Of a stretch of 64,000 nt of DNA, positions 20,016 through 34,712 are shown one piece after another (positions within the stretch are counted from its first letter, which is position 1; every line of letters begins with the position of its first letter). Source of the DNA: Acuticoccus sediminis (GTDB lineage: Bacteria; Pseudomonadota; Alphaproteobacteria; Rhizobiales; Amorphaceae); contig NZ_QHHQ01000004.1 in the NCBI RefSeq assembly GCF_003258595.1, positions 558,001 through 622,000 of the forward strand, written 5' to 3'. A model generated the notes under the pieces. The model ran no database searches, was not told where the DNA came from, and saw nothing but the letters and a program-made list of their open reading frames with translations. The translations under genes and the position numbers were made by a program.

Positions 20016-20090
20016 TCCCCGGTAGCTCAGCGGTAGAGCAACCGGCTGTTAACCGGTTGGTCGCTGGTTCGAATCCGGCCCGGGGAGCCA
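20016..20090 (+). tRNA. tRNA-Asn (GTT)
   Basis: A 75-nt cloverleaf with encoded CCA. Acceptor TCCCCGG pairs with CCGGGGA (20080-20086), the D-loop has AGCTCAGCGGTAGAGC, anticodon GTT is at 20048-20050 in a CTGTTAA loop, and the T-loop is GGTTCGAATCC. Its 3' 45 nt are reused as attachment site by the element downstream, which keeps the tRNA intact. Confidence 0.97.
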
Positions 20091-20094
20091 CTCG
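20046..20094. repeat. attL, 49-bp core
   Basis: This copy includes tRNA anticodon loop to CCA plus CTCG. It matches 34664-34712 at every position, and the flanking bases differ on both sides, so the limits are exact. Confidence 0.95.
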
Positions 20095-20133
20095 CATCAA
20101 GGGGTTAGACGCCACCCCTAAAATCCCTAAACC

Positions 20134-20176
20134 GAATGATCTACGCAGTTTCTACGGAAGAGCCCGTAGCTACGAG
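20134..20176. promoter_or_regulatory. left arm-type integrase sites
   Basis: GAATGATCTACGC (20134-20146), TTCTACGGAA (20150-20159) and GCTACGAG (20169-20176) all recur inside the right end at 34514-34584. The common core is CTACG. They sit 40-80 bp inside attL, as expected for arm-binding sites of a tyrosine integrase. Confidence 0.5.
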
Positions 20177-20352
20177 CAGATGCGATCACGGTGAGCGGAT
20201 GCCGATCCAGCAATCTGCAGTCACCCTACCCGCGGCCACCAAGCTACGTTGTGGCTTGGCGAGTCTCCCGGCCCGTGATCGCCATCGACGCACCTCCTCC
20301 GATGCGGCACACTCAAAGCGCGCCGAACGCAATCGGATGGTGGAAACCAGTG

Positions 20353-20544
20353 ATGGGATTTTCCAGGGGCGGCACAATCGCCACGAACGGTGACCTCAGC
20401 GTGGTCGAATGGGTCGGCAGCAATGTCGACCTGGGCTTTCAGAAGCCCTACGAGGGCCTAGTGAGTGGGCGCCGTGTCCAGGAGTTCGACACGAAGGAAG
20501 AGGCCCTACGCTGGCTCTATGGCGACGACACTGGCAACCGGTAG
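20353..20544 (+). CDS. small hypothetical protein of the element
   Basis: A 63-aa frame from ATG 20353. The product is mixed acidic/basic with a C-terminal segment DTKEEALRWLYG that looks like a genuine helix. The frame is open back to GTG 20191, but the extra residues are Pro/Ser-rich and unconvincing. The end overlaps the next small gene by 26 bp. No family recognised; it may be element cargo. Confidence 0.4.
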   Translation: MGFSRGGTIATNGDLSVVEWVGSNVDLGFQKPYEGLVSGRRVQEFDTKEEALRWLYGDDTGNR

Positions 20545-20767
20545 CCCACTTCAGCCGACCGTCATCGCAACGATCGGCGATCTGATAGACCACCGCTACA
20601 CGCTGACTGCGCACTGCCGACACTGCGTGCGGTCAGCCCTACTCGACTTGGATGCGCTGGCTGCACGCTTGGATCGGGATCGATCCTACGTCGCCCCCAT
20701 GCCGCTCAAATGCAGAGTTTGCGGAGCGCGAGATATTGCGGTGATCCTACATCCGCCGCGGCGGTGA
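20519..20767 (+). CDS. small zinc-ribbon-like protein
   Basis: An 82-aa product starting at ATG 20519. Two CxxC pairs, CRHC near residue 33 and CRVC near residue 67, are spaced as in a zinc ribbon, separated by a Leu/Asp/Ala-rich helix. It may bind nucleic acid. The gene overlaps the preceding small gene, suggesting one transcript. Followed by a 7-bp-stem inverted repeat. Confidence 0.5.
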   Translation: MATTLATGSPLQPTVIATIGDLIDHRYTLTAHCRHCVRSALLDLDALAARLDRDRSYVAPMPLKCRVCGARDIAVILHPPRR

Positions 20768-20781
20768 CGAGATCAGCGCGT

Positions 20782-20797
20782 AGCACAAAGTTGTGCT
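20782..20797. other. AGCACAA/TTGTGCT inverted repeat
   Basis: A perfect 7-bp stem with a 2-bp centre, 15 bp after the zinc-ribbon gene. It could be an operator or a weak terminator. The stretch 20798-21032 that follows shows no gene I can support. Confidence 0.3.
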
Positions 20798-21032
20798 GAG
20801 CCTACATGAGGTGCTCCCCGAAACTGGGACAGCGGCGATCACCCAATGCCGTCCATCCGCCGGCGTCACTGAAGGCGCGAAGCCTATCGCAAGGCATGGG
20901 GGCGGGCCTTCAAATGCCTCCACCGAGCGGCCCCGGACCGGTGAGGCCCACTTTTCACGCTAAACCGTAACAATTCTAGTTGAAGCAGGTCGACTCGGAA
21001 GCGACCCCGCTCATGCGCGAGATCGGAACCGC

Positions 21033-21260
21033 GAGCCGCATGTCGCGCTGAAGCCGATCGTCGAGGGGATGGGGCTCCAATGGGAAGCCCAGCAAAAACG
21101 TGTCCGACGCGATCCGGTTCTCGGAACCTGCATGTCCATTACGAACATGCAGGTCGGAGGGCAGGGGCGCCAGGTCACGACGATTCCTTTGCGCTACCTC
21201 AACGGCTTCCTTTCCGGGATCGACGTGAACCGCGTGCGTCGCACATATGGTTGCACCTGA
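21033..21260 (+). pseudogene. remnant of a P22-type antirepressor N-terminal domain
   Basis: The frame reads EPHVALKPIVEGMGLQWEAQ, then QKRVRRDPVL, QVTTIPLRYLNGFLSGID and NRVR, which follows the P22_AR_N (phage antirepressor) domain closely. It stops with TGA at 21258-21260, well before the antirepressor C-terminal region. No start codon in a family-like position lies upstream. An ATG at 21069 would begin inside the domain. So it is truncated at both ends. It marks former phage regulatory DNA at the left end. Confidence 0.65.
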
Positions 21261-21270
21261 CGGATAGCCT

Positions 21271-21509
21271 CTGGCCCCGCTGGCCCCGCTGCGGAAACGG
21301 CAAGCGGGGCCAGAAAACACCAATGATTTCAACGTGGCCCCGCTTGGCCCCGCTGGCCCCGCCTCAAAACTAGGGGTCGGGGCTGGGCCAGCGCTGGGCC
21401 AAACCCAGTCCCGCTTGGTCCCGGTCGGTCCCGGTCGGGAAATCCGAGTGGGACCGGAAAAACCTCAGGGTTTCTGCGGCCGGTCCCGCTGGTCCCGCTC
21501 GGTCCCGCT
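21271..21509. repeat. GGYCCCGCT dispersed repeat, left locus
   Basis: This stretch has at least ten copies of a 9-mer GGCCCCGCT or GGTCCCGCT. Two longer modules are seen: 21312-21363 shares AAAACACCAATGATTTCAAC with the locus at 28982-29095, and 21431-21509 is near-identical to 28499-28576. No coding frame of quality runs through it here. Confidence 0.75.
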
Positions 21510-21665
21510 AAATTTCGATAGAAACCGCATTTCACTCGGAATTGCGCGCGAGAGACCCCCACCGGTCCTGGCCCGTTCTCGGGAAAGCTCAGACCCACTC
21601 CTCATTGCTCATGCGAACTACAGCAGTCTAGTCTTGCTTTGTCATGACCACCAAGGATCTGAGAA

Positions 21666-21995
21666 TTGCCACTTTTCCTAAGGCCTCTCATTGCGTGTAC
21701 GCGCGCTTGCATAGTCGCTTCGGTCGTTGCCGTCGCAACGTCGTCACTGGCACAGGAAGTCAAAACCCTTGGAGATTGGAGTGACGCTACAAAAGAATCC
21801 AGAGTGAAGTTGTCAGTCAGGTGGGCGCTGGCAGTGCTGTCGGAGACAGAGCAGCAAGAGCTTGGTCGCCTAGGTACAGCACTTTTTGCATCGCAAATTA
21901 TGACGTGCGTCGACGAAGTCGCTACAGGTGACGAGTTCTCGACGATGAACTTAAACGACGTAGTGGTCGGGTGTGTTGTTCTGCTGCGACAGTAA
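21666..21995 (+). CDS. small secreted protein, possible cargo
   Basis: A 109-aa frame with an N-terminal export signal: basic start, hydrophobic IVASVVAVATSSLA, and a cleavage site after SLAQE-like sequence around residue 30. The mature part is about 80 aa, helical in appearance, with two cysteines (MTCVDE and VVGCVV) that could pair. TTG at 21666 is the start, with AAGGA 8 nt before it. It is antisense to the open 3' extension of the ParB remnant, and this strand looks like the real one. No family recognised. Confidence 0.5.
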   Translation: MPLFLRPLIACTRACIVASVVAVATSSLAQEVKTLGDWSDATKESRVKLSVRWALAVLSETEQQELGRLGTALFASQIMTCVDEVATGDEFSTMNLNDVVVGCVVLLRQ

Positions 21996-22120
21996 ATGGA
22001 AGTCGCCGCACATCGACCGCCATCGCAAGCGCTTTGAGGAACGGCGGAGTTCCTTCGCCTGTCCCGCGAGATACCTCTCGCCCCGGCTCCGAGGAAGGAC
22101 CCCGTATCGAGCTTCGTGCC

Positions 22121-22483
22121 ACGGATGACGTCCATGGCCTCTTGGGAGACCTTGGAGCCGCGCTCAGCGTCCCGCTGTACCTTGCGTTCGGACTGCCCGG
22201 TGGCGCGGGCGGTGTCGGCGGTGAAGCGGTCAGCCGAGGAGTCGCCAACTTGGCGACTCCTCGTGTGCTGGTTCTCCCCGTGCGTCGTCTCCGGGTGCAT
22301 CCTCTCGTAGATCGCCTTGCGCCGCGCCGTAAGCTCCGCCCGTTCGGACGGAGAGAGTTCGTTGCGGCACAGGTTCTCGTCGATCTCCCACAGTTCGGCA
22401 TCGACGCTACCGTCACGGACGATGAAGTCGGCTGACTCGGTGCCGAGTCGCTTCATCAGCCTCTCATTGGATTCGCCATTCAT
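22121..22483 (-). pseudogene. truncated phage ParB-like nuclease/partition protein
   Basis: Residues from the ATG at 22483 match the middle of phage ParB-like proteins: a fragment of the ParB/Srx fold (VDAELWEIDENLCRNELS), RRKAIYERMHPET, SRQVGD, DRFTADTA, ATGQSERKVQRDAERG and GTKLDTGSFL. The first half of the ParB domain is missing, and past 22121 the open frame (to 21602) turns into Ser/Thr/Cys-rich sequence antisense to a secreted-protein gene. So both ends are lost. It begins 7 bp after the XRE stop. Confidence 0.65.
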
Positions 22484-22490
22484 GGCTACG

Positions 22491-22721
22491 TCAGCGGCCC
22501 TTCTTCAGCCTCACCCCAGCCCCGCCACCGTTCTCGGCAATGAACTCGACGCCAGCGTCCTCAAGAGCGCGCTGGATCGCGACGAGATTGTTGATCGACG
22601 GCAGCCGCCGACCCTTCTCGAAGTCCCTGATGGTGCTCTCGCTCAGGTTGGAGCGCCGGGCAAGTTCAGCCTGGGTAAGGCCGATGAGCCCACGGGCGCC
22701 TCTTGATTGTGCCGGTGTCAT
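22491..22721 (-). CDS. XRE-family repressor
   Basis: The 76-aa product is little more than a lambda-repressor-type HTH: IGLTQAELARRSNLSESTIRDF with FEKGRRLPS is the classic pattern. No oligomerisation or LexA-type cleavage domain follows. It is divergent from a two-gene operon across a 110-bp region with two matching palindromes, so it probably holds that operon, and perhaps the element, in check. Lack of a cleavable domain means induction would need a partner protein, as with satellite Stl repressors (analogy only). Confidence 0.85.
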   Translation of the reverse strand: MTPAQSRGARGLIGLTQAELARRSNLSESTIRDFEKGRRLPSINNLVAIQRALEDAGVEFIAENGGGAGVRLKKGR

Positions 22722-22757
22722 CGATCCGTCCGCGTCTAACGTATTTCGTATAGCACA

Positions 22758-22820
22758 AACGAAAAGCGTTGACAGGTAACGAAATACTCGGATACCGTCA
22801 CCTATCAACGAAAACCGTTG
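22758..22820 (+). promoter_or_regulatory. two-operator promoter of the satellite switch
   Basis: Two AACG-N5-CGTT palindromes, 22758-22770 and 22807-22819 (the second extended to CAACG/CGTTG), lie 49 bp apart. The first overlaps TTGACA (22769-22774); GATACC at 22791-22796 is a fair -10 at 16 bp. The second operator would lie at the transcription start. The pattern suits repression by the adjacent XRE protein. Confidence 0.6.
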
Positions 22821-22831
22821 GAGGTATCGAG

Positions 22832-23104
22832 ATGCCCAAGAGCAATGCAAGCGAAGCGGTCCTCGCCAAGGACGACACCGTCGAAGTGCCGACGCTGCTC
22901 GACCTAGTCACCGAATGGGACTCGCTGGAGGCGCGCATCAAGTTCTACACGGCGGGAGCGGAATCCGTCGCTGGAGATGGCACCCGCCACTCGTGCGGCG
23001 ACGCGATGCTGCGCGCGAGCGACGACCTGATTGAGTTCGTCGACCAGTTCGAAGAGATGCTCAACGCTTACGCCGATGCGCATAAGGCGGAGGCGGCGCG
23101 ATGA
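22832..23104 (+). CDS. small acidic protein, first gene under the XRE switch
   Basis: A 90-aa acidic, helical product with GGAGG at 22820-22824 before its ATG. LLDLVTEWDSLEARIKFY and DDLIEFVDQFEEMLNAYAD look like two amphipathic helices. No family recognised. Its place immediately behind the repressor-controlled promoter, opposite the XRE gene, is that of a Cro, antirepressor or early regulator. It is coupled to the next gene by ATGA. Confidence 0.6.
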   Translation: MPKSNASEAVLAKDDTVEVPTLLDLVTEWDSLEARIKFYTAGAESVAGDGTRHSCGDAMLRASDDLIEFVDQFEEMLNAYADAHKAEAAR

Positions 23105-23346: not shown

Positions 23347-23376
23347 CGGCTGACGTCGCCAACGCCGAAATCAAAG

Positions 23377-23405: not shown

Positions 23406-23453
23406 TTACTATCTTAGGGCCAAGTAGAGACTGAGGCGGGATCGCCCCTCCCC

Positions 23454-26078
23454 TCAGTCAGGAACTCCCCACCCTCGCAGCGTGCGTGTCTTCCGGGTCT
23501 CTTTGTCGTGGCTTCTGGCGTCGGAGATGCTCGGAACGCTTCTGGCGACGCGGTCCGATGCCTTCCGGCTTTCCGCTCGGGCGATCGGCCCGGCTGTGCG
23601 CTCGACCGCGGAGTCGAAGCCGCCGTCAGCGTCGAAGCGGGATGCGATCTCAATCACCAGTTTCTCGATACCGCTCCCCGGCGCCGAGGCGGACGCTCCG
23701 GCCATCGACGGCGTCATCATCCGATCCATCATGGACTTGGTGCGGTTCGCGTCGAGGATCGTCCCGTTTGCGCCGGGGACGAACAGTTCCTTGCCCTGTT
23801 CGCCGACCATGTACGGCTGACCAGCGCGTACGGGGCCACCAGACGCTCGGCCTAGCAGTCCACCAAGAAGGCCACCGCCGAACAGGTTGCCGAGCGGCCC
23901 CTGACCGAACAGGGCGCCTTGCAGCACCATGTTGGCGATCTGCTTCGCGAGCTGCTTGAATTTCTCACCGGCATCCTCGGCGCCATCTCCAAGCGACAGG
24001 AGCGTGTCGAGGATCGGTTGCCCGATGGCCTGCGCCGCAGCCCCAACATCCTGCTGCGCCTGCTCCAGCTTCTGCTGTGCCGCAGCCGCTTGATCGGTCG
24101 CGTCGCGAAGTTCGAAGAGCTGCGAGACGAGCGCGCGGATCTTCTCTTCCTGCTGAGCGTCGACCTCGATGCCGGCAGCCTTGAGCTGGTTCAGCTTCTC
24201 TCGGACCAGCGCCTCTTCATCCAGGGCGTTGTTGATCGCATCTTGGTCGAACCCTGCCGCCTGAAGTTCGGCGCGCTTGTTCTCGATCTCCAACTCGCGG
24301 GCGAGTTCCTCGTTGACCCGCGCAAGCGCCTCGGCTTGGCGCATGGCATCGTCGGCGACCTTCGCACGATCGGTCTCCGCGGACTGAGCGGCCCGTTGCA
24401 GCTCACGCTCGGTCCCAGATCCCGGCGCCTCGAAGTGCATGGCGTCTTTTCGGGACTGCCAGCTTCCGCCCCATTCAAGGCCGTGCTTCCGCGCCAGCTC
24501 CGCAACGTTCACGGGCAGGTCCGTGACGAGCCTGTCACCCATCGGGTTCTGAGCCGGATTGATGTCGATCGCGTTGCCGAACGCATGGTTGGAGAGCGTG
24601 TTCGTGCCGGCGATGTTGCGGTTGTTGTACCCGCCGAGGCTTCGGATTTGGTAGCCCTGCCGCTCCAAGTCGTCGATCAGGCCCTGAAAGCTTCGCGCGT
24701 GCTCGGCGTTCACCATCGCCGATTGACCGCTCGCTGTGCTGATCCTCACGAGGCGCTGGCCATGCGCGCCCATGGTCCCCTCGATCGGCTGCGGCAGTCC
24801 TGAGGCCGTGGTGCTTCCAGTCGGCGATGGATGAACCGTGACAGACGTTGGCGCCGTCGTCGAAAGCTTCTGCAACTGGGCATTGGCACGGGACAACTCA
24901 TCCGTCAGAAGCGCCGCCTGACGCCTCGCAGCATCGATCGCCGTCGCGCCGGCATCGGCATCTTCAAGGCGCTGGACTTCGTCGTTGGCCGCCTGCCATT
25001 GCGACTGAAGCTGCTCAACCCTTTCAGTCTGCTTCGCGACCGCCGTCGCCTTGAGATCCGGGTCCAGGAGTGTGACGCCCGAGGTGTCGGCTATCCCCAT
25101 GGCGATGAGCCATTGGTTCAGGGAGCGGTTGGAGTCAGTGTTGCCGAGCGCCGAGAGGAACTTCTCGGCCGCGGCCTCCCACGTGGCGATGTTCCGACCG
25201 ATCTTAAGCACCCAGCTCGAAGTGTTGGTCAGGGCGGCGTTCACCCGCGACTCGATGATCGCGGACATTTCGGTGAAGGCATTGTTCACCTCGGCGGCAC
25301 GGTCGGCGACGTCACTGGACAGGACGATCCCGAGGTCGCGAGCGCGCTGGATGTTCGCGCGAAGCTTCCCCTCACCAGCATCCAGGAGCTGCACGAACTG
25401 CTCACCGCCGGTTCCGCCGAAGATTTCGTCCGCAATACGGATCTGCGCGGCGCGGTCGAAGCCTTCCAGCCGCTTGATGATGTCGAGAAAAAGTTCTTGC
25501 GGGTCCTTGAGCTTGGCCGCCAGCTCGTCTGCACCGTACCCGAGGCGGGTGAAGGCCTCAGCCGCAGAACCCTTGCCGGTGACCGCGAATTCGTCAGCGC
25601 GAAGCTGAAGCTCCTTGATGCCATCCGTCAACGCATCGATGCTGACGCGTTCGCGGGAGAATGCGTATCCGAGTTCCTGAAAGGCCTCGAACGAGATGCC
25701 GGCGCGCTTCGCCGCATCTGCCATGGCCGCGATGGCTGCGGTGGTGCGATTAATCTGTGAGATGGCGGCGCCGGCACCGACACCACCAGCAAGGCCGGCG
25801 AGGCCTGCCGCAGGGCCAAGACCCCCCAAGAGGTTCCGCGCATCGCCAAAACCGTTGCGCAGGGCCGCGAGCTTCCTTGAGACACCCGTCGTCGCCTGAG
25901 CGAATTCCCTCTCCATCACGTCAGCGGCACGCTTGGATGCCCGCTCGACACCCTTCATATTGTCGTTGACGCCCTTCCCCATCTTGTCGACCTTGCGCTC
26001 GACAGATTTGAGGGCTTTCTCGAAGTCGGCAACGCGGCCTTCGACGAGGATCGCTAATCTTTCGCTGTCGTCCGCCAT
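23454..26078 (-). CDS. phage tail tape-measure protein with internal M15 peptidase
   Basis: An 874-aa protein. Residues 1-110 are a charged helix then a Gly/Ala-rich hydrophobic stretch. Residues 340-405 and about 560-700 are coiled-coil. Residues 450-552 form an M15 (VanY/endolysin-like) domain with zinc ligands His498 and Asp505 in SNHAFGNAID and His548 in MHFE. The C-terminal ASGGPVRAGQPYMVGEQG with ELFVPG is the usual tape-measure tail. Tape measures set siphophage tail length and help DNA cross the envelope; the peptidase would cut peptidoglycan peptides. No other tail gene is in the element. Last gene of the long minus-strand operon. Confidence 0.85.
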   Translation of the reverse strand: MADDSERLAILVEGRVADFEKALKSVERKVDKMGKGVNDNMKGVERASKRAADVMEREFAQATTGVSRKLAALRNGFGDARNLLGGLGPAAGLAGLAGGVGAGAAISQINRTTAAIAAMADAAKRAGISFEAFQELGYAFSRERVSIDALTDGIKELQLRADEFAVTGKGSAAEAFTRLGYGADELAAKLKDPQELFLDIIKRLEGFDRAAQIRIADEIFGGTGGEQFVQLLDAGEGKLRANIQRARDLGIVLSSDVADRAAEVNNAFTEMSAIIESRVNAALTNTSSWVLKIGRNIATWEAAAEKFLSALGNTDSNRSLNQWLIAMGIADTSGVTLLDPDLKATAVAKQTERVEQLQSQWQAANDEVQRLEDADAGATAIDAARRQAALLTDELSRANAQLQKLSTTAPTSVTVHPSPTGSTTASGLPQPIEGTMGAHGQRLVRISTASGQSAMVNAEHARSFQGLIDDLERQGYQIRSLGGYNNRNIAGTNTLSNHAFGNAIDINPAQNPMGDRLVTDLPVNVAELARKHGLEWGGSWQSRKDAMHFEAPGSGTERELQRAAQSAETDRAKVADDAMRQAEALARVNEELARELEIENKRAELQAAGFDQDAINNALDEEALVREKLNQLKAAGIEVDAQQEEKIRALVSQLFELRDATDQAAAAQQKLEQAQQDVGAAAQAIGQPILDTLLSLGDGAEDAGEKFKQLAKQIANMVLQGALFGQGPLGNLFGGGLLGGLLGRASGGPVRAGQPYMVGEQGKELFVPGANGTILDANRTKSMMDRMMTPSMAGASASAPGSGIEKLVIEIASRFDADGGFDSAVERTAGPIARAESRKASDRVARSVPSISDARSHDKETRKTRTLRGWGVPD

Positions 26079-26099: not shown

Positions 26100-26474
26100 T
26101 TAGTTGAAGTAGCAGGTAAGGGGATCGTCGTCGTTCTGCGGGATATCGACCCGGCTACGATCCGCTGGTGTCGCGCCCATAGCGCTAAGACACATTCGGA
26201 GCTGCGCTATCGCGTTCACGCTCATCGCCGGATCTGTCGCAAGCCGCGCACGAAGCGTCGAGGCAACCTCGACAAGCACGCGATCCGCTTCGGTCAGCCA
26301 AGGGATCTCGGCGCGGAACCTGTCCCAAGCCGCCCTCTCGACCTCGCCGAACCAACTTGGCGCCTCAGCCAACGGCTTGAGATTGGGTTCTGCTCGGTCT
26401 TTGAAGCGGGCCGGATTCTTTGCAGACGCCCCGGTGACCCGAGCTTTCCCAGTAGGTATTCTTGGACGAGGCAT
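26100..26474 (-). CDS. terS: terminase small subunit-like protein (P27 type)
   Basis: A 124-aa protein: a basic, disordered N-terminus, then PSWFGEVERAAWDRFRAEIP, LTEADRVLVEVAS and a helical segment with the conserved spacing of P27-type small terminases. TerS selects the DNA to be packaged by a large terminase, which is not encoded here. In phage-inducible islands a lone terS redirects helper packaging. AGGA sits 10 nt before the ATG. It lies 21 bp before the tape-measure gene and after a 203-bp non-coding repeat region. Confidence 0.6.
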   Translation of the reverse strand: MPRPRIPTGKARVTGASAKNPARFKDRAEPNLKPLAEAPSWFGEVERAAWDRFRAEIPWLTEADRVLVEVASTLRARLATDPAMSVNAIAQLRMCLSAMGATPADRSRVDIPQNDDDPLTCYFN

Positions 26475-26677: not shown

Positions 26678-26902
26678 TCACTGATGTGCCATCCCGGGCC
26701 AGCACGTTCGGACGTGGGCTCGCATCGCCTCACGGGTTTCATCGAGCCATGCCTGCTGCTCATCGAGCATCACGCGGCGTTCTTCGGATGTTGCGCCCAA
26801 GCGATCGGCGAGGTCATCGACGCGGGACATCACGGTTTCCTCGTGATCGTCCATTCGAGCGTCCACCATATCCATGGCCTGAGCGAGAGTGCTGGGCTTC
26901 AT
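26678..26902 (-). CDS. small coiled-coil protein of the element
   Basis: A 74-aa acidic helical protein (MDMVDARMDDHEETVMSRVD and LDEQQAWLDETREAMRAHV), probably coiled-coil. It overlaps the upstream gene by 4 bp. Small proteins of this kind are common near head and tail genes, but I recognise no family. Confidence 0.6.
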   Translation of the reverse strand: MKPSTLAQAMDMVDARMDDHEETVMSRVDDLADRLGATSEERRVMLDEQQAWLDETREAMRAHVRTCWPGMAHQ

Positions 26903-27210
26903 CGGGCATCCTTCCCATCGCGGCCGGCCTTAACCGCCAGTTGCCAGTTGTTTGAGGCGCCAGGGGCCTCACCGGATCGGATGTCGGTCAGAGCGATCCA
27001 CAGACTGCCCGAGGCGGTGACGGCATCGCCGCGGCTATAGTCGGCCGCCTTCTGATGGACGCCGCGGTACGCCAACCCCTTCGCCTCTGATGCTGCGACG
27101 CGCGCCTCCAGGACAGCGATCTTGCCAGCAAGGCGCGCCGTCTCTCGATCGACGTAGCCTTTGACGGCACTGACGATCTCGGCGCCGAACGCTTCACCAT
27201 CGAACTTCAT
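26899..27210 (-). CDS. phage-type protein with carbohydrate-binding-like module
   Basis: A 103-aa protein: an N-terminal helix (residues 10-45, a likely coiled coil) then YRGVHQKAADYSRGDAVTA, SGSLWIAL, APGASNNWQLAVKAGRDGK. The second half follows the short WYRG-GDxV-GSLW-W repeat seen in phage structural proteins and CBM5/12-like modules. It probably contributes to a virion or tail part. Start ATG 27210 overlaps the upstream stop by ATGA. Confidence 0.6.
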   Translation of the reverse strand: MKFDGEAFGAEIVSAVKGYVDRETARLAGKIAVLEARVAASEAKGLAYRGVHQKAADYSRGDAVTASGSLWIALTDIRSGEAPGASNNWQLAVKAGRDGKDAR

Positions 27211-27660: not shown

Positions 27661-28215
27661 TCAGTCCTTCCGGCTTGTGTTGTTGAACTTCGGCTTGACG
27701 GCGCCGACGAGCTTCTCTGCCTCTTTGATCAGAGTCAGAACGTGAGGCGTAATTTCGAGAAGCTTGCTGTTGAGCGGAACACGGGAAGCTTTGCTCGTCT
27801 GGTTAAATACGGCCCCGACCAACAGCAGATCGCGTATATCTACGAGCCGACTTGCGAGGGCCTCGTGATACCGGGTCAACGGATCTTCGAGGTCCGCCTT
27901 CGTCGCCGCCACATAGTCGGCGCGGCGCTTATCGCGCTCGGTCTTCGCCGCCTTCTCGGCCTCGATCGCCGGAGCGAGACATTCCCCCAGTTCGTCGACC
28001 TCTCGGTGCGTTATTACGGGGGCTTGACCGAACTTGGTCGACGCGAGCGCACGCTGGGCATCTTCAAGGCGCTTCGCCGCCGCCTCGCGTGACGCCGTGG
28101 CGGCAGTCAGGGCGTCATGAGCTTCGGCGATCGACGCCGGCTCATCCGGGATACGGAGGTCCTTAAAGAAGGAATACCAGCCGTCGCTCGGCTCAACGAT
28201 CTCTGTCAATGTCAA
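27661..28215 (-). CDS. coiled-coil protein, unknown
   Basis: A 184-aa protein with a long Ala/Glu/Lys-rich helix (residues 28-105), probably a coiled coil, then a globular C-terminus. The start is TTG at 28215 with GAGGG 7 nt upstream; no ATG is near. It is preceded by a 46-bp AT-rich gap that may hold an internal promoter for the structural part of the operon. Function unknown. Confidence 0.6.
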   Translation of the reverse strand: MTLTEIVEPSDGWYSFFKDLRIPDEPASIAEAHDALTAATASREAAAKRLEDAQRALASTKFGQAPVITHREVDELGECLAPAIEAEKAAKTERDKRRADYVAATKADLEDPLTRYHEALASRLVDIRDLLLVGAVFNQTSKASRVPLNSKLLEITPHVLTLIKEAEKLVGAVKPKFNNTSRKD

Positions 28216-28261: not shown

Positions 28262-28477
28262 CTAGTCTTTAAGTAACGCGTTACGAAGAAGCGTCGATAT
28301 TGCCTTGGCTATACAATCTTCTTCTTCGCCAACCAAATCCCCTAACAGTCCGTCGTCGAACAATCGCTGTCTCAGCTCATCCGAAACCTCGACGGGTATG
28401 ACGCTGACGCCCTCCTTTTGGCGCCTGCGCCAGCGCCTCTGACGCTCGGCGTTCGCGGCCTTGGCGCTACTCCCCAT
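28262..28477 (-). CDS. small basic prophage-type protein
   Basis: A 71-aa protein beginning with a very basic segment (ERQRRWRRRQKEG) followed by VIPVEVSDELRQRLFDDGLL. This layout is frequent in alphaproteobacterial prophages and resembles a small DNA-binding regulator. Start ATG 28477 lies inside the end of the preceding gene (11-bp overlap). Confidence 0.65.
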   Translation of the reverse strand: MGSSAKAANAERQRRWRRRQKEGVSVIPVEVSDELRQRLFDDGLLGDLVGEEEDCIAKAISTLLRNALLKD

Positions 28478-29231
28478 CGTTGCCGGTCCCGCTGGTCCCG
28501 CTCGGGAAATCAGAGTGGGACCAGCAAAAGCCCAGCGTTTCTGCGGCCGGTCCCGCTGGTCCCGCTCGGTCCCGCTCATTTTCAAGAGGGGGCAAATTTT
28601 GAACGACGTCCCAGACGTAGGCACCCTCACCTCCACGTCGGTCACGCCACACTCGGCGGGTGCCGTTGCGCGAGGATCGCAGGACCATTGCCTCATCGCT
28701 GATGGCTGCGACATTCGTTGCGAGGAAGGCGGCACCGATACGATCGAAGCGGAGCCACGGTGCACGAGGATCGACCTGGAATAGGCGCTCCAGCGTCCAC
28801 CCGAGACTGAGAGCACGCTCAGCCCATCCGAGGCGGATAAATCCAATCGCGTTCTCGATATACCTTCGGCCAGCGCTGCAGAGATCGCCCTCCGTCGTCA
28901 GCCGTTCCAACTCGGCGAGCGGCTGACGAAGTTCCTCAGCGACCTTGGTCCCGAAACTGTTTTGGGCTCCTCGTTTTTGACCGGGACCAGCGGGACCAAG
29001 CGGGACCGCGTTGAAATCATTAGGGTTTTTTCGGTCCCACTCCGAATTCGCGAGCGGGACCAGCGGGACCGCGTTGAAATCATTGGTGTTTTCTAGTCTC
29101 GGCGTCCTATTCGGCACCGGTGCACTGTGATGTTCGGACACGGGGGTCTGGCACCGCCGCACCGCTAGGGGCGCAAGCGCGGCCCTGATCCGCTCCCTAA
29201 TGTCAGGGCTGAGAAGCACTTCATACGTCAT
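28467..29231 (-). CDS. element protein interrupted by repeat-encoded inserts
   Basis: A 254-aa frame. The core (about residues 95-205, with AELERLTTEGDL, ERALSLGWTLERLF and DRIGAAFLATNVAAI) looks like an ordinary folded domain. Residues about 47-85 and 220-254 are instead encoded by the GGTCCCGCT-type repeats and read as VPLVPL, LGPAGP, AGPAGPA and GTSGTS. The frame stays open through both inserts. It overlaps the DUF927 gene by 11 bp, so it may be a replication partner. Family not recognised. Confidence 0.6.
   Translation of the reverse strand: MTYEVLLSPDIRERIRAALAPLAVRRCQTPVSEHHSAPVPNRTPRLENTNDFNAVPLVPLANSEWDRKNPNDFNAVPLGPAGPGQKRGAQNSFGTKVAEELRQPLAELERLTTEGDLCSAGRRYIENAIGFIRLGWAERALSLGWTLERLFQVDPRAPWLRFDRIGAAFLATNVAAISDEAMVLRSSRNGTRRVWRDRRGGEGAYVWDVVQNLPPLENERDRAGPAGPAAETLGFCWSHSDFPSGTSGTGNDGE
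28484..28576. repeat. GGTCCCGCT repeat, locus inside the 3' end of the 254-aa gene
   Basis: It contains five clear GGTCCCGCT-type 9-mers plus an 80-bp module that matches 21431-21509 in the same orientation, with only scattered differences, including CGGGAAATC and TTTCTGCGGCCGGTCC. Confidence 0.75.
28982..29095. repeat. GGTCCCGCT repeat, inverted locus inside the 5' half of the 254-aa gene
   Basis: The units read GGGACCAGC on the plus strand, opposite to the copy at 28484-28576. Two sub-modules each contain GGGACCGCGTTGAAATCATT, which also occurs (reverse complement, with one change) at 21312-21363. Confidence 0.75.
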
Positions 29232-31017
29232 CGCCAGCTCCCAGGATCTGCGCGCGAACCGCGTAGGCTCGCGGCCTGTTAGGCACGGAATGGGGTGTGC
29301 GGCGCTTCAACCGCCCGTCAGTGTCGGCATCGAGCCAACCAGCCGAAATGAGGTACTTTGCGGCCCGGCTTGGGTCCGCCCCTGCGTGGATCTCGCGCCA
29401 TGCATCTACGGCGATGTAGTAGTGCCTCTCCGTGGCCCAGCCGGCCCGGTTGAGGACCGGGAGGCGTTGTGCTGTGAATGAGTCGCCCGCGGTCCCGGAG
29501 TTGCTATCGGCTTCGTTGACGCGCTCGAAGCGGGACGGTCCATGCGTCGTCAGGAATGCGCGGGTCCGCTCGATGGCCTCGCGCGCTTCGTCGGAACCGG
29601 CCCCTCCCCGCCCATTGATCCAAAGTTCGAGGGCCGTCACAGCTGCGGCGAACGAGTCGCCCTCGTCCCATCCGGTCAGACCGAATTGAGTAGCCAACTC
29701 GCCCGCTGCCGCGACGATACCGAGCCGCTGAACTCCGCGTTCGGCCTGTCCGCTCTGAAGTGACTGCTGTGCGGTAGCTTGGGCACGAAACTCCTCGATC
29801 AAGGTCCGCGCTGTCGCCTTTACCCCCGTGGGGTCTTTAAGGATCTCGCCGATGAACGCAGGCCCGGCGGAGCCGAAGTGGCTGGCAGTTGCCGCCCGCA
29901 GTGCGTCCGCGAACTCTGCACCATCCGCCCGACCGTGCAGTTCGTCGAAAGCTCCGAACCGGCGCGTATCGGCAGCGATATCGAGAAGACGGACCTGCTG
30001 CCCAGCCTTCACCCGCCGGCCAGCCTCGGCCATCTTGTCGGCAAGTCCGATCTCGCCGCTGGACAAGAACATCACCCGCCAGCGGATCGGGCTGCGAGCG
30101 CGCCCGGTTCGGTCCGCCCGCTGCCTGCCGGAGCCGTTTGCCAGCATATAGCTACATTCACCAGCGTCGCGCCCGTTCACCTCGCCAAGTTCGTCAAGAA
30201 CGAGGATCGTCGAGTTGCAGGACGCCGCGATGCCCTCGAGACCGTTTGAAGTACTTCGCCACGTTGAGACGAAGCGTGGGCTGCCCCAGACGGATGCGGC
30301 GAGACGCTGAGCAGAAGTCTTGCCGCTCGACGAGGCGCCTCGCAGATGAATACCACCACCGTCGAGACCGAGCAGTTCTAGCAGCGGACCGGCAAAGGCC
30401 GCAGAGACCGCCAACACCAGCAGCGGGTTGCCGCGGCAGAGCGAGGCGACGTTCTCAGTCCATTCGGCGACGGTTCCCGCCTCTCGCATCTCTGTGGCGG
30501 CAGCAACGTTGCCGTGCTCGTGCTGGAACACAATCCGAGCGTCACCCAGCGTGCGACCATCACCTAAAATGAACGCCTCGCAACTTTCATCCGTCCAACC
30601 GAGGCGGTCAGTCTTGAGCGCTCGGGCGGATGGTTCCCATCGTGATAGAAGGTCGGAGAACGCGGCCTTGGACCGGGCGCCGGATGCTAGACGGAGCCCG
30701 CGGTCGAGGAATTCGGCGCGCATCTCGGCCCCGTCCCCAGCGAGCATCCGAGCCGGGATAGACCATGTGTGCGTTCGGCCATCGGCATCGATGATCTCGG
30801 TGTGACGGCCCCAGCCTTCGCCGGAACGATCACGGGTCAGAGCGACCACACGAAGCGGCGAACAGAGCCATCTCCATTCGGTTGCGCCTTCGGCCGCCTC
30901 CTCCTCGCGGTCAACGCCGTTGGCCCGGACCTGAAAACCAGCCGGAAGACCATCAGGTTTGGTGTTGTCCGACACGAGACGCGCGGCCTTCTTTGGTCGA
31001 CCAGTCATCGCGTTCAT
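29221..31017 (-). CDS. DUF927-domain ATPase, probable replication protein
   Basis: A 598-aa protein. The DUF927 ATPase has Walker A GASSSGKT at 227-234 (preceded by GGGIHLR) and Walker B ILVLDELGEV with Asp275-Glu276. The N-terminal 210 residues carry the family's helical and beta domain. DUF927 proteins occur with phage and plasmid primases and are thought to be helicase-like. I take it as the element's replication ATPase. Start ATG 31017 overlaps the upstream gene by ATGA. Confidence 0.8.
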   Translation of the reverse strand: MNAMTGRPKKAARLVSDNTKPDGLPAGFQVRANGVDREEEAAEGATEWRWLCSPLRVVALTRDRSGEGWGRHTEIIDADGRTHTWSIPARMLAGDGAEMRAEFLDRGLRLASGARSKAAFSDLLSRWEPSARALKTDRLGWTDESCEAFILGDGRTLGDARIVFQHEHGNVAAATEMREAGTVAEWTENVASLCRGNPLLVLAVSAAFAGPLLELLGLDGGGIHLRGASSSGKTSAQRLAASVWGSPRFVSTWRSTSNGLEGIAASCNSTILVLDELGEVNGRDAGECSYMLANGSGRQRADRTGRARSPIRWRVMFLSSGEIGLADKMAEAGRRVKAGQQVRLLDIAADTRRFGAFDELHGRADGAEFADALRAATASHFGSAGPAFIGEILKDPTGVKATARTLIEEFRAQATAQQSLQSGQAERGVQRLGIVAAAGELATQFGLTGWDEGDSFAAAVTALELWINGRGGAGSDEAREAIERTRAFLTTHGPSRFERVNEADSNSGTAGDSFTAQRLPVLNRAGWATERHYYIAVDAWREIHAGADPSRAAKYLISAGWLDADTDGRLKRRTPHSVPNRPRAYAVRAQILGAGDDV

Positions 31018-31304
31018 GCGGCGGCACCTCGTTCCCAGGCACCGCACCAGTCGCTGCGCGAGACGCTCGGCCAGACCGGATCTTCGGTAACGTCGAGCAC
31101 TACCGGAGGGCGGCGCCGGCACAAACCGAACCGGCGAGGCGCGTCAGCAGCGGCGAACCATCGGCACGTCGCGCACGTCCCTTGTCGCGCATCGCTTGTC
31201 GCGTTACTTTTGCCGTCGGTACAAGTTGCCACTGTCAAAGAAGCGAGACTGGTCCGGCGGTCGTGGGCAGACGGCGCCGGGCCATTTTCGTTGTAGCCGC
31301 TCAT
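31014..31304 (-). CDS. small Cys-rich, probably zinc-binding protein
   Basis: A 96-aa protein. CATCRWF, then FGLCRRRPP and DWCGAW give the C-x2-C...C...WCG pattern of small phage zinc-binding proteins. The first 40 residues are polar and disordered. It overlaps both neighbours by 4 bp. The role is unknown; nucleic-acid binding is likely. Confidence 0.6.
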   Translation of the reverse strand: MSGYNENGPAPSAHDRRTSLASLTVATCTDGKSNATSDARQGTCATCRWFAAADAPRRFGLCRRRPPVVLDVTEDPVWPSVSRSDWCGAWERGAAA

Positions 31305-31630
31305 TCGGCAGCCTCCCGTGCCGCGGGTTCCGCCGCGTAAACTGTCTCCATATGGCTTTCCGAGCGATCGAGGCGGCGCTCGATCGTCGAGGCAAGGTCC
31401 TCCTCGACGCCCAGCCGCTCCAGCATCAGTCGGACGCCATTGCGGTTCAGGCAGAGCGTGTTTCCGCACTCGTTGAAGTGGGTTCGGCGGACCTCGCCAT
31501 TCGTGTCGACGATCCACCGGGCGACCTCGCTCCGGACGTCGTCGAAATCGACATCAGCAGCGGCGGCGAGCTGCTCTAGCGTCATCGCCGCCCCACCCTG
31601 AGTGACGTAGCATTCGAGGGCGAGGGTCAT
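31301..31630 (-). CDS. small element protein, possible HTH
   Basis: A 109-aa protein. MTLEQLAAAADVDFDDVRSEV resembles a short HTH of the type that begins many regulators, followed by a two-Cys segment (ECGNTLCLNRNG) and an acidic helix. Coupled by 4-bp overlaps on both sides. Family not recognised. Confidence 0.55.
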   Translation of the reverse strand: MTLALECYVTQGGAAMTLEQLAAAADVDFDDVRSEVARWIVDTNGEVRRTHFNECGNTLCLNRNGVRLMLERLGVEEDLASTIERRLDRSESHMETVYAAEPAAREAAE

Positions 31631-32136: not shown

Positions 32137-32387
32137 TCGCCCTCCCCGCGGAGGATGCAGAGCGCGGCTTCGAGATGGGGCCTCGCCTGCTCAAGCGCCG
32201 AGCGAAGGTGATCGTCCGGCGAGGGGATGGTGGAATTCTCGGAAGCCGCCTTGAAGGCGGTCGTACCGTGCTCGGATGCGGCCAATGCCATCTCGATGAA
32301 ATGGGCGCATTTGCGATAGTTCGCGCCGGCCTCGGCGCTGAGGATGCGATTTTGCTCGCGGGTCGACGGCTGGATGTTGTCGTTCAT
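32133..32387 (-). CDS. small helical element protein
   Basis: An 84-aa protein predicted helical throughout (YRKCAHFIEMALAASEHG, DDHLRSALEQARPHLEAAL). It shares one base with the upstream stop (TGATG) and overlaps the next gene by 4 bp. No family recognised. Confidence 0.55.
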   Translation of the reverse strand: MNDNIQPSTREQNRILSAEAGANYRKCAHFIEMALAASEHGTTAFKAASENSTIPSPDDHLRSALEQARPHLEAALCILRGEGE

Positions 32388-32641
32388 CACGCAGCCCCCT
32401 CTTTGCGGGCCGCGGCGGCATGTTCGAGGAGCGCGACGATTTCGCTGCGGCGCCAACGGGACGTGCCGGCGCCAAGCTTCAGCGGCGCGGGGAACCGCCC
32501 ACTTTTAACACCGCGGTAGAGGGTGGATGGGGTGATCGGCGACATCATGCCACCGATCAGCTCACATGCGACCTTCGCCGTAACGAGGTCGTCTTCGTCC
32601 GGGAGTCTTGCGTGTTGGGTCTGCACTTCCTTGCCTCGCAT
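32387..32641 (-). CDS. AlpA/excisionase-type HTH protein
   Basis: An 84-aa protein. LVTAKVACELIGG, then TPSTLYRGVKSGRFPAPLKL and SRWRRSEIVALLE are the MerR-like winged HTH of AlpA and phage excisionase proteins. In P4-type and PICI elements AlpA activates the integrase or excision genes. Its place 42 bp after the 178-aa gene and two genes from int fits that role here. Confidence 0.85.
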   Translation of the reverse strand: MRGKEVQTQHARLPDEDDLVTAKVACELIGGMMSPITPSTLYRGVKSGRFPAPLKLGAGTSRWRRSEIVALLEHAAAARKEGAA

Positions 32642-32682
32642 TGTGTTGCGACAAGGAGCAAGGTGGCCTGTTCGACGTCCGA

Positions 32683-33219
32683 TTAATCCCGTTTGCCGGA
32701 CAATTTCTTGAGCGCGCGGTCGATTGCTTTGATGGCACTCGAACGCTTGAGGTCATTCCTCTTACCGATTTGCGCCTTCAGTGCTGACGCCGAGCGGTGC
32801 CCGGCAGGGTCGTATTGGGCAAGAAACTCCCTCGCCATGGCCATATCTCGCGCATCATTTGCACCGGATGGCCTGCCGCCCCCTGAGTGGCGCACTTCTT
32901 GCCCAGTTCGAATATAGACCTGAAGATATTCTTGCTTTAGGTAGTCTAAACTCATTCGAAGTCGGCAGATATCTGTCGTGGCCTCCTGTTTTTGACCCGA
33001 TAGGAGTCGATGTCGGGCACGAAAAAGGCACGCCCCAACGTTCTGCTCAGTAAATTCCTGCAAAAAGAAGTCTCGCCTTGCCCAATCTTGGCTTCTCGCA
33101 GCAATGATTTTCGCCGCTTGTCGAAACGCGGCGCCATTCCGAGAATATTCGGTCTCGACGGAGACAATCATGGCGTCGATCTGCTCGTCAGATAAATCGG
33201 TGTCAAACAGAACGCTCAT
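32683..33219 (-). CDS. conserved-looking element protein beside int
   Basis: A 178-aa protein: an acidic N-terminus (SDEQIDAMIVSVETEYSRN), a helical middle and a basic C-terminus (RNDLKRSSAIKAIDRALKKL). The start overlaps the integrase stop by ATGA. No family recognised; a DNA-binding accessory for excision is one possibility, from location only. Confidence 0.6.
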   Translation of the reverse strand: MSVLFDTDLSDEQIDAMIVSVETEYSRNGAAFRQAAKIIAARSQDWARRDFFLQEFTEQNVGACLFRARHRLLSGQKQEATTDICRLRMSLDYLKQEYLQVYIRTGQEVRHSGGGRPSGANDARDMAMAREFLAQYDPAGHRSASALKAQIGKRNDLKRSSAIKAIDRALKKLSGKRD

Positions 33220-34481
33220 TCAGTCAACTCCCCAGCGTTGAGGTGAACTATTCGACAAAGGTGATCTGACCAACTCTCAAGAGCTTCCCGTTTCTCGACG
33301 CTGTAGTCGTACCGGGCATAGACGCGGGTCGTAATGCTCGCCCGCGTCACGCTGATGTGGTTGAGGACGTGCCCGATCACGAACGGGTTAACCCCGAGTT
33401 CTTCCATCCCGGTCGCGGCTGATCGCCGGAGATCGTGGGGCGTCCATGGGGAAATTCCCAAAATCTCCGGCGCCGCGTCTGGTGTCTCGCCTGCCTCCTG
33501 ACGCTTGACGGCCTTAGCGACCGCGGCCCCAGTAATTGATGCGCGAGCACCCGGCCCCGGAAACACGAACGGCGGAATGCCCCTACCCTTCCGTTTCGCC
33601 AAATCGGCTGATGCCTGCAGCTGTGCGTTGATGATCTCGCAGGCAAAGTCCGTGAGAGGGACAATGTGCTCGCGCTTGTTCTTCGATCTGGCGGCTGGGA
33701 TTGTCCAAAGTCGCGATGCGAGGTCGACTTCGTCCAGCGTCATGCCGGAGACCTCGCCAACGCGCTGAGCAGTGATGAGGCAAAGTCGAATGATGCGCCG
33801 TGTCGCTTCCTGCATTTCGGAGACGGACAGGGCTTGCCACATCGTGCGGATCTCGGTCGCCGACAGAACACGGTCCCGTTCGATGACCACCGTCGGGCGC
33901 TTCATTCCCTCTGTGAGATTGCGATCGAGGTCGCCCCGCCCCTGAGCCCATCGCACCATTGCGCGGAGGTCCTCGAAAACACGGTTCGCCTCGACGCCAG
34001 CGCCGCGGTCCTTGACCGTGTCTATGCATTGAGTGAGGTCGCGTCGGTGCAATTGTTCCAGCTTCACCGAGCCGATAACCTCACCCACGTTCTTGCGCAG
34101 CCGGCGCGCAATTTCGTCAGCAGAGCGCTTTGTTGAAGCATGCCGCGTGAGATAGTTCTCAATCAGGTCGTCGACCGTCTGTGCAGCGGCTGCAGCGCGC
34201 TTCTCAATGATCGGGTCCGTACCTTCGCCGATGTCTGCACGCGTGTCCCGGGCCTTTGCTCGCGCCTTCGCAAGAGACAGTTCCGGATACCGCCCCAGCT
34301 TCAACCAAGCACGGTCCTTCGACCCAGGCTTTGTGTAGACGAGGTAAAAGGTCTTGGAGCCTCCGGCCGATACCTTAAGACAGAGGCCCTTGACGGTGGC
34401 GTCGAAGTGATTTGTCGAGCGCGCGCCGTCGACCACCTTCGCCGCTTGGCACGCTCGATCGGTCAATTCTGATACCGCCAC
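33216..34481 (-). CDS. int: tyrosine integrase, P4 type
   Basis: A 421-aa site-specific recombinase. The N-terminal DUF4102-like arm-binding domain spans about 1-90 (KGLCLKVSAGGSKTFYLVY, LGRYPELSLAKAR), then SAM-like core-binding and catalytic domains. Catalytic residues are Arg240 (TAQRVGEV), His349-x2-Arg352 (HDLRRSA), His371 (GHVLNH) and Tyr388 (VYARYD). I prefer GTG 34481, which follows GGGGA; the frame is open to 34565, but the extension is basic and unlike the family. It is 180 bp from attR. Confidence 0.92.
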   Translation of the reverse strand: MAVSELTDRACQAAKVVDGARSTNHFDATVKGLCLKVSAGGSKTFYLVYTKPGSKDRAWLKLGRYPELSLAKARAKARDTRADIGEGTDPIIEKRAAAAAQTVDDLIENYLTRHASTKRSADEIARRLRKNVGEVIGSVKLEQLHRRDLTQCIDTVKDRGAGVEANRVFEDLRAMVRWAQGRGDLDRNLTEGMKRPTVVIERDRVLSATEIRTMWQALSVSEMQEATRRIIRLCLITAQRVGEVSGMTLDEVDLASRLWTIPAARSKNKREHIVPLTDFACEIINAQLQASADLAKRKGRGIPPFVFPGPGARASITGAAVAKAVKRQEAGETPDAAPEILGISPWTPHDLRRSAATGMEELGVNPFVIGHVLNHISVTRASITTRVYARYDYSVEKREALESWSDHLCRIVHLNAGELTE

Positions 34482-34513
34482 GCACTGATCCCCTCGACCA
34501 ACCGGTTCCCGTG

Positions 34514-34584
34514 TTCTACGGAATGATCTACGCGGCAACGTGCGCTTTGTCGATATCCCTCGCACTAGCTCGCAATGCTACGAG
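34514..34584. promoter_or_regulatory. right arm-type integrase sites
   Basis: TTCTACGGAA (34514-34523), GAATGATCTACGC (34521-34533) and GCTACGAG (34577-34584) repeat the three left-arm sequences. They lie between int and attR, so they would also overlap the int promoter and could let integrase regulate itself. Confidence 0.5.
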
Positions 34585-34663
34585 ACACAAAACCCCAGAG
34601 ATTTTGCGGCGTTCAGGAAGAAGAAGGGTGCGAGGCGTTGCAACGAATTGCAGTGGAAAACCT

Positions 34664-34712
34664 CTGTTAACCGGTTGGTCGCTGGTTCGAATCCGGCCCG
34701 GGGAGCCACTCG
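34664..34712. repeat. attR, 49-bp core with tRNA-Asn 3' fragment
   Basis: An exact copy of 20046-20094. It contains only the tRNA half from the anticodon loop on, without acceptor or D-arm, so it is not a second tRNA gene. Confidence 0.95.

What the first reader, a model, noticed from the sequence alone, without database searches (positions are those of the whole stretch)
20046..34712. A 14.6-kb satellite-like island in tRNA-Asn with phage packaging and tail genes but no capsid or large terminase
Seen: exact 49-bp att repeats, integrase, AlpA-type protein, DUF927 ATPase, TerS-like gene, tape-measure gene, in one nearly gapless operon, and a separate repressor switch. Known: phage-inducible chromosomal islands have int, alpA, replication genes and a lone terS, and are 10-15 kb. 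Inference: this is a satellite of an unknown alphaproteobacterial siphophage. A stripped prophage is the alternative, but the intact overlaps argue against random deletion.
Basis: partly seen in the sequence, partly recalled or inferred. Interest (0 to 1): 0.8.

Follow-up and report, generated by a model that had tools for sequence, protein, structure and literature searches.

The report
Phage satellite with own tail ruler
A 14.7-kb island in an Acuticoccus bacterium looks like a parasite of phages that brings only a DNA-packaging selector and a tail-length protein and would borrow the rest of the virus particle; other elements with the selector but no packaging motor occur in related bacteria, which hints at a little-described kind of virus piracy.

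Summary
A 14,667-bp low-GC island (20046-34712) sits in tRNA-Asn between exact 49-bp repeats; two sister species have the tRNA with one 49/49 copy and no island. It carries an integrase, AlpA-like regulator, DUF927 helicase, small terminase subunit (TerS) and an intact 874-aa tape measure protein (TMP); no large terminase (TerL), portal, capsid, tail tube or tail tip was found. Best reading: a phage satellite, not a randomly stripped prophage. A second Acuticoccus species has the same block (CopG-182aa-103aa-74aa-TerS-TMP) at 30-56% protein identity, with another integrase and helicase and no TerL, portal or capsid found, though its TMP is broken. Of 55 loci with this TerS family, 38 have TerL within 0.75 kb; 17 show none, 16 of these no portal either (only nine of the 17 have 4 kb on both sides). 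Ten of the 17 pair TerS with a TMP, some with protease or capsid genes. They are not one clade on the TerS tree, so the state probably arose more than once. Likely mechanism: the satellite's TerS and TMP are used in helper virions. Satellite TMPs making chimeric tails are published for Vibrio PLEs (2026); TerS and TMP as the only recognised structural genes is a new variant. Mobilisation is untested.

The parts
20016..20090 (+). tRNA-Asn(gtt), integration site
   Evidence: ARAGORN; Rfam
20046..20094 (.). att core, left copy (49 bp)
   Evidence: 49/49 single copy in empty sites of G159 and G064
34664..34712 (.). att core, right copy
33216..34565 (-). tyrosine integrase, 449 aa
   Evidence: Pfam E 6e-22, phrog_1 E 2e-62
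32683..33219 (-). 178-aa protein of unknown function, overlaps int by 4 bp
   Evidence: ORF; no family
32387..32641 (-). AlpA-like regulator/excisionase
   Evidence: phrog_66 E 1e-5; Pfam just under cut-off; 42% to a G193 homologue
31301..31630 (-). 109-aa protein shared with own-genome element 2 (47%)
   Evidence: E 2e-28
29221..31017 (-). DUF927 replicative helicase/primase-like protein (start codon uncertain)
   Evidence: Pfam E 2e-75; phrog_1139 E 7e-81; NCBIfam Cch1 helicase E 6e-17, below cut-off
28983..29092 (.). GGGACC iteron cluster 3 (inverted orientation), candidate origin
28485..28588 (.). GGGACC iteron cluster 2, candidate origin, near the helicase gene
21416..21521 (.). GGGACC iteron cluster 1, 88% identical to cluster 2 over 95 nt, 7 kb away
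   Evidence: 3 clusters in the island; 0 of 1000 simulations had 3
28262..28477 (-). small CopG-like protein (label by eye), first gene of the conserved block
   Evidence: similar genes in L036 (E 2e-8) and G100 (E 1e-6)
27661..28209 (-). 182-aa long-helix protein, conserved in G100 (33%)
   Evidence: all-helical model, mean pLDDT 81; no confident structural match
26899..27210 (-). 103-aa protein with a tail-fibre-like domain, homologues in G100 and G193
   Evidence: phrog_5073 E 5e-6, phrog_1289 E 8e-14 on the 121-aa ORF
26678..26902 (-). 74-aa protein, homologue in G100 (30%)
26100..26474 (-). TerS (small terminase subunit), 124 aa
   Evidence: phrog_83 E 5e-13; phage TerS genes E 2e-23; 56% to G100 TerS; omega 0.22, synonymous sites near saturation
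23454..26078 (-). tape measure protein, 874 aa, with internal M15 peptidase domain
   Evidence: phrog_10574 E 3e-112; M15 E 7e-18; purifying selection in most segments
22832..23104 (+). small gene shared with other satellite-like elements (L036, own element 2)
   Evidence: E 3e-14 and 1e-11
22491..22721 (-). HTH repressor-like protein, divergent to the + strand genes
   Evidence: Pfam HTH_3 E 3e-11 on the 119-aa ORF
21602..22483 (-). truncated ParB-like remnant
   Evidence: phrog_3264 E 1e-15, profile positions 109-243 of 337 only

Best explanation
The island is an integrated phage satellite. AlpA and the HTH repressor would control its switch; the integrase excises it from tRNA-Asn; the DUF927 helicase replicates it, perhaps from the GGGACC iterons. 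A siphophage helper supplies portal, capsid, TerL, tail tube and tail tip. The satellite's TerS redirects the helper's TerL to satellite DNA, and its tape measure protein is built into the helper's tail, giving a chimeric tail. The TMP swap would set tail length and, through its peptidase domain, the wall-penetration and DNA-entry step; it may also free the satellite from immunity aimed at the helper's TMP. Shown: gene content, mobility signature, empty sites, purifying selection on most of the TMP and on TerS, and recurrence of TerS + TMP without recognised TerL or portal. Inferred: every functional step.
For: Exact att repeats and empty sites in two sister species. Complete int-AlpA-rep-TerS-TMP set, no TerL/portal/capsid found. 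Same block in G100 (TerS 56%, TMP pieces 37-50%, 182-aa 33%, 103-aa 34%, 74-aa 30%) with a different integrase and helicase and no capsid or TerL hit in 35 kb. TerS family: 38 of 55 loci have TerL within 0.75 kb, 17 have none; of the nine of these 17 with at least 4 kb on both sides, seven have a TMP (six by HMM; L193 by PHROGs). Among the 17, MCP hits lie upstream of TerS in 7 and downstream in 2 (L180, L181); in TerL-bearing loci MCP hits lie downstream. The lone-TerS state needs 8 changes on the TerS tree, at least 3 by strong branches, so it recurred. TMP omega 0.28/0.09/0.15 in three of five segments against own element 2; TerS omega 0.22 against G100. Precedent: PLE satellites build their own TMP into helper tails and need it for transfer (PMC12987554, section 8 read).
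Against: No induction, packaging or transfer data. No helper identified: the prophage on C5 has a TerS without significant match (E 0.14) and the window TMP did not match the 1117-aa gene in its TMP position (identified by eye). On the TerS tree the window's nearest rows by path are TerL-bearing (L219 and others), and G100's TerS falls outside the group that holds the window's, although it has the highest identity. Two of the nine well-flanked TerL-less loci (L191, L236) show no TMP. G100's TMP is broken by a frame break and an IS3-type insertion. The left 2.4 kb of the island looks decayed. Two TMP segments have higher omega: 0.78 (aa 291-430, poorly alignable) and 0.54 (aa 431-560, low divergence). 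No tail assembly chaperone hit, unlike PLEs. None of eight other elements had the GGGACC clusters. PADLOC and Rfam gave no further support.
Confidence: 0.67

Rival explanations
1. Decayed remnant: a former head-bearing satellite or prophage that lost its capsid genes and no longer moves; TerS and TMP are leftovers.
For: ParB-like remnant and about 2.4 kb nearly gene-free at the left end; G100's TMP is disrupted; own element 2 in the same genome has a 75%-identical TMP inside a full head module, and the 92-94% nt-identical middle segments show recent exchange; the window's TerS lies nearest phage-like TerS rows by path.
Against: 17 main ORFs open, 11 of 16 junctions overlapping; purifying selection on most TMP segments and TerS; same reduced block in G100 with other int and helicase; TerL-less TerS-TMP elements elsewhere, mostly with another capsid-TerS order; own element 2 has a TerS without significant match (E 0.11).
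Confidence: 0.21
2. Interference module: the TMP is mainly a decoy that poisons helper tail assembly and protects the host, not a part of satellite particles.
For: Satellites and prophages are known to attack tail assembly (Tai, PMC11364771, passages; Rta, PMC12987554).
Against: Rta is an 80-aa protein; this is a full-length TMP with a peptidase domain under selection, adjacent to TerS.
Confidence: 0.07
3. The TMP's M15 peptidase serves as the element's lysis enzyme and the rest of the protein is vestigial.
For: M15 domain E 7e-18; phage endolysin families are among the PHROG matches.
Against: N- and C-terminal TMP regions are conserved with omega 0.28 and 0.09-0.15; no holin among the family matches of the island.
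Confidence: 0.03

Closest known systems
PLE satellites of Vibrio cholerae (PLE1, PLE4, PLE11; PMC12987554: abstract, section 8 and passages seen)
   Same: Satellite-encoded TMP with a helper-supplied capsid; there shown to form chimeric tails and to be needed for transfer.
   Different: PLEs add a tail chaperone and some a baseplate hub, use a contractile-tailed helper (ICP1), and live in Vibrio. Here a lone TerS is paired with a TMP of siphophage-like relatives, and no chaperone was found. I made no sequence comparison with PLE TMPs.
Gram-negative PICIs (PMC6092414, passages seen)
   Same: int, AlpA, replication gene, sometimes a terS, specific att site.
   Different: No TMP is mentioned in the passages seen; here the int lies at the att copy distal to the tRNA and the replication protein is DUF927.
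cf-PICIs (Alqurainy 2023, known here only from passages of PMC11389934 and PMC12987554)
   Same: Some carry a putative tmp (Extended Data Fig. 10 legend of PMC12987554); own element 2 and many 12-19 kb IMG/VR contigs resemble this kind.
   Different: cf-PICIs make their own capsid; no capsid, portal or TerL was found in this island.
Elements found here: G193 (L044), G639 (L249), L171, L222, L242
   Same: Islands or contigs with a TMP and no TerL or portal hit; all but G193 with this TerS family.
   Different: They add MCP or protease and some gp10 and a chaperone-like gene; the window keeps TerS and TMP only.

Membership tests
Phage satellite (general) | Integrated element with int and att sites, absent from sister genomes | tested here: met
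   (two sister genomes with an empty site)
Phage satellite (general) | Lacks genes for a complete virion | tested here: met
Phage satellite (general) | Mobilised by a helper phage | not testable with these tools
   no experimental data; helper not identified
Gram-negative PICI | AlpA-type regulator and replication gene after int | tested here: met
   AlpA hit just under the Pfam cut-off
Gram-negative PICI | Replication origin of the PICI type | tested here: inconclusive
   three GGGACC clusters; organisation not compared with PICI origins
Gram-negative PICI | TerS or helper cos/pac for specific packaging | tested here: met
   TerS
cf-PICI | Own capsid, portal and TerL genes | tested here: not met
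PLE | Satellite TMP used in virions with a helper capsid | tested here: inconclusive
   TMP present; use in virions not testable
PLE | Tail chaperone (TAC) gene beside tmp | tested here: not met
   no hit to the chaperone-type HMMs built here; a very divergent one could be missed
Complete prophage | Head, packaging motor and tail modules | tested here: not met

The most novel reading that the evidence does not exclude
A distinct satellite strategy, seen in genomes of at least three genera of this alphaproteobacterial order and evolved several times: elements that carry TerS and a tape measure protein (with or without their own capsid protein or protease) but not TerL or portal, so that every particle has a chimeric packaging machine and a chimeric tail. 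The TMP is kept because it decides tail length and DNA entry, letting the satellite enter cells that are immune to its helper.
Probability: 0.4. Interest if true: 0.78.

Novelty: new variant of a known kind. Interest (0 to 1): 0.62.

Why it matters
Well-studied satellites were thought to hijack phage tails; PLEs are described as the first family known to build their own tape measure protein into them (PMC12987554). This island and its relatives suggest the trick also occurs outside Vibrio, and in a minimal form where TerS and TMP are the only recognised structural genes. That gives a small two-gene system in which packaging choice and tail length or DNA entry could be separated, and a simple genomic signature (TerS beside TMP, no TerL) to find more.

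Tried and rejected
Stripped-prophage reading: weighed against G100, the TerL-less loci, the capsid-TerS order and selection; kept as a rival at 0.21. A single origin of TerL-less TerS: not seen on the tree (8 changes, at least 3 by starred branches); no formal one-clade test was run. Homology of the window's 182-aa helical protein with the protein upstream of the protease in other satellites: hhalign probability 0.9%, rejected. Structure of the 182-aa protein: fair model, no match at E 0.001 or better. TerS model: low confidence (mean pLDDT 68.7), no useful fold match, no convincing solved-structure match. Defence genes: nothing but one weak Cas1 hit, E 0.0035, in 10 proteins. RNA genes: only the tRNA. 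DUF927 search of viral contigs: no relative confirmed. Att search for G100: no repeat of 16 bp or more in the stretches tried; its ends are unknown. Att repeats for L249, L222, L242, the G035 element at 5.59 Mb and the C5 prophage: none of 14 bp or more in the stretches tried. Literature: the listings of searches showed no paper on alphaproteobacterial satellites with a tape measure gene, judged by title and start of abstract; only the open library was covered, and the SatelliteFinder paper was not held.

Rows dropped: 12 of 55 TerS loci were left out of the tree (3 lacked a hit to the window-type TerS profile, 9 were near-identical). Only the best 80 of 153 TMP relatives were kept by the tool. 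Several of the 55 loci look like overlapping contigs or copies of one element (for example L231-L235), so counts are of loci, not independent elements. In one search the HMM labels failed to print for a technical reason (names with blanks); C5 and C3 genes there are named by eye or. In one search the zinc-ribbon gene was given wrong coordinates, so its printed 110-bp gap is wrong; one search gives the right ones. The PHROGs scan of L249 listed only the first 25 of 44 families; absence of TerL there rests on the HMM scan.
Full report
1. The observation. The island 20046-34712 is real. Exact 49-bp repeats bound it, the left one in tRNA-Asn(gtt) 20016-20090. GC falls from mostly 0.67-0.75 to about 0.60-0.65. 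Two sister species (G159, G064) have the same tRNA-Asn, one 49/49 copy of the repeat, matching upstream DNA and only host-like genes (by eye) in the 19.0 and 10.5 kb fetched, so the site is empty there. In G159 the DNA right of the island lies on another contig, so the right junction could not be aligned.

2. Content. Reading from the right end: integrase, 178-aa protein, AlpA-like protein, four small genes, DUF927 helicase, a repeat-rich ORF, a small CopG-like gene, 182-aa helical protein, four small genes, TerS and an 874-aa TMP with an M15 peptidase domain. All 17 are open frames and 11 of 16 junctions overlap. On the left are a divergent HTH repressor, two small + strand genes and a truncated ParB-like remnant. 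No TerL, portal, capsid, tube or tail tip was found by Pfam and PHROGs scans of 20 ORFs each, by HMMs built here from 80 viral loci and reference loci or by tblastn with tail-tip proteins. The same HMMs found TerL in 38 of 55 TerS loci, so they do detect phages of this kind.

3. Replication. GGGACC occurs 24 times in the island, 1.64 per kb against 0.63 outside. Three clusters (21416-21521, 28485-28588, 28983-29092) were seen; 0 of 1000 first-order Markov simulations had three and 1 had any. Two clusters are 88% identical over 95 nt and 7 kb apart. Near a helicase gene this suggests an origin with iterons; a two-site arrangement recalls P4 ori/crr (recalled, not tested). Against a general rule: none of eight other elements checked had such a cluster.

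4. Close relatives. G100, another Acuticoccus genome, has int-155aa-AlpA-...-AAA-type ATPase-CopG-187aa-102aa-74aa-TerS-TMP (some labels by eye). TerS is 56% identical, the 182-aa protein 33%, the 103-aa 34%, the 74-aa 30%; TMP pieces are 37-50%. Its integrase is 26% identical and its ATPase is another protein. Its TMP is disrupted by a frame break and an IS3-type transposase, and its ends are unclear, but no TerL, portal or capsid hit lies in the 35 kb read. The window's own genome holds a second element (own2, C4, 17.3 kb, 48-bp att in tRNA-Arg) with a 75%-identical TMP inside a head module (portal, protease, MCP, TerS, TerL), plus shared small genes.

5. Selection. Window TMP against own2: omega 0.38 overall; by segment 0.28 (aa 1-290), 0.78 (291-430, poorly alignable), 0.54 (431-560, low divergence), 0.09 (561-780), 0.15 (781-874). 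TerS against G100: 0.22, with dS about 2, so rough. The alternation of 72%, 26%, 92%, 97% and 79% identical segments suggests recombination between co-resident elements.

6. The wider pattern. TMP relatives: 91 of 249 order genomes (many match only the peptidase), 7 of 8 genus genomes (again partly peptidase only), and 153 viral loci, best 80 kept. Of these 80 contigs 54 are 12-19.5 kb long (from the list); many show a head module, TerL and TMP, then regulatory genes and int. Tail-tip homologues were found in 5 of 80, and in 5 of the 44 with at least 3 kb beyond the TMP; tips of other types could be missed. TerS relatives: 2 of 8 genus genomes, 9 of 397 order genomes with 10 places, 5 of 385 class genomes, and 13 and 37 viral loci. 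Of the 10 order places, five lack TerL (own, G100, G035 twice, G639) and five have it. Of 55 TerS loci examined, 38 have TerL within 0.75 kb; 17 have none, and 16 of these also lack a portal hit (L178 has one). Several of the 17 are short contigs; nine have at least 4 kb on both sides. A TMP was found by the HMM in 9 of the 17 (window, G100, L171, L181, L221, L222, L230, L242, L249); L193 has another TMP type, 424 aa, matching the first half of its profile (phrog_8892 E 4e-49); L177 has a 492-aa protein with weak TMP-like resemblance. Of the nine well-flanked loci, L191 and L236 show no TMP. TerS sits 22 bp or less from the TMP in the window, G100 and L221. MCP hits among the 17 lie upstream of TerS in 7 and downstream in 2, against downstream in the TerL-bearing loci that have one. 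The TerL-less rows are scattered on the TerS tree: 8 changes (shuffled mean 13.6, at most 1 of 500 shuffles as low), at least 3 forced by strong branches; the window's nearest rows by path are TerL-bearing, although its highest identity is to G100.

7. Mechanism. PLEs encode a TMP, a chaperone and in some a hub protein; PLE11 TMP replaces helper TMP in the virion, tails are about 10 nm shorter, and tmp deletion cuts transfer by 96-99.9% in three PLEs (PMC12987554, section 8). [quoted passage not shown] 10 legend lists cf-PICIs with putative tmp. The most economical reading of the window is a siphophage version: TerS redirects the helper's TerL and the TMP rebuilds the helper's tail. Bypass of TMP-directed immunity is a further guess, suggested by Rta and by tail-targeting defences.

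8. Helper. The own genome has what looks by eye like a complete siphophage prophage on C5 (TerL at 78018, tail-tip match at 65219). The window TMP did not match its TMP-position gene and its TerS has no significant similarity (E 0.14), so it is not supported as helper. Other TerL places are own2, C8 and C3.

9. Verdict. The island is a satellite by anatomy; mobility now and use of the TMP in particles are inferred. It is not a cf-PICI, and it is PICI-like in int, AlpA, rep and TerS but with a TMP. It is a new variant of a known kind. On rereading the calls I lowered the best-explanation confidence slightly (0.68 to 0.67) and raised the remnant rival (0.20 to 0.21), because the tree places the window's TerS nearest phage-like rows.

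Noticed in passing
G000:C4:204001-221390 (L048 14002 to L049 11391): Second satellite-like element of 17.3 kb in tRNA-Arg (48-bp att) with head genes, TerS, TerL and a TMP 75% identical to the window's, but no tail tube hit.
   Followed up: partly
G000:C3:719471-731024 (L202 4472-16025): 11.5-kb island with 19-bp repeats, int, AlpA-like gene, TerL, MCP-, protease- and portal-like genes (named by eye apart from TerL) and no TMP seen.
   Followed up: partly
G000:C8:1-12000 (L050): Third TMP-bearing element, cut by a contig end: TMP, TerL, connectors, MCP, portal.
   Followed up: no
G000:C5:56000-90065 (L199-L201): Prophage that looks complete, with another TMP type (1117 aa, by eye); possible helper, not supported by TerS similarity.
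   Followed up: partly
L036, L092-L170: 54 of 80 viral contigs are 12-19.5 kb; many have a head module, TerL and a TMP as last structural gene and no recognised tail tip, perhaps a large satellite group. L036 and the 60.5-kb contig L092 bear the same IMG genome number.
   Followed up: partly
L171 4610-5167, L193 9840-10478, L242 7190-7708: Prohead-protease-like gene without a recognised capsid gene beside a lone TerS, in three elements.
   Followed up: no
L193 3888-4634, L249 5890-6522, L044 12802-13416: Proteins of 200-250 aa beside the TMP that look like Ntn-hydrolase (proteasome-like) proteins by eye; no PHROG match for the L193 and L044 ones.
   Followed up: no
L044 13652-18335 (G193): Element with MCP (phrog_617 E 2e-48), gp10 and TMP but no TerS, TerL or portal hit.
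   Followed up: partly
window 21602-22483: ParB-like remnant lacking the N-terminal third of its family profile, at the island's left end.
   Followed up: partly
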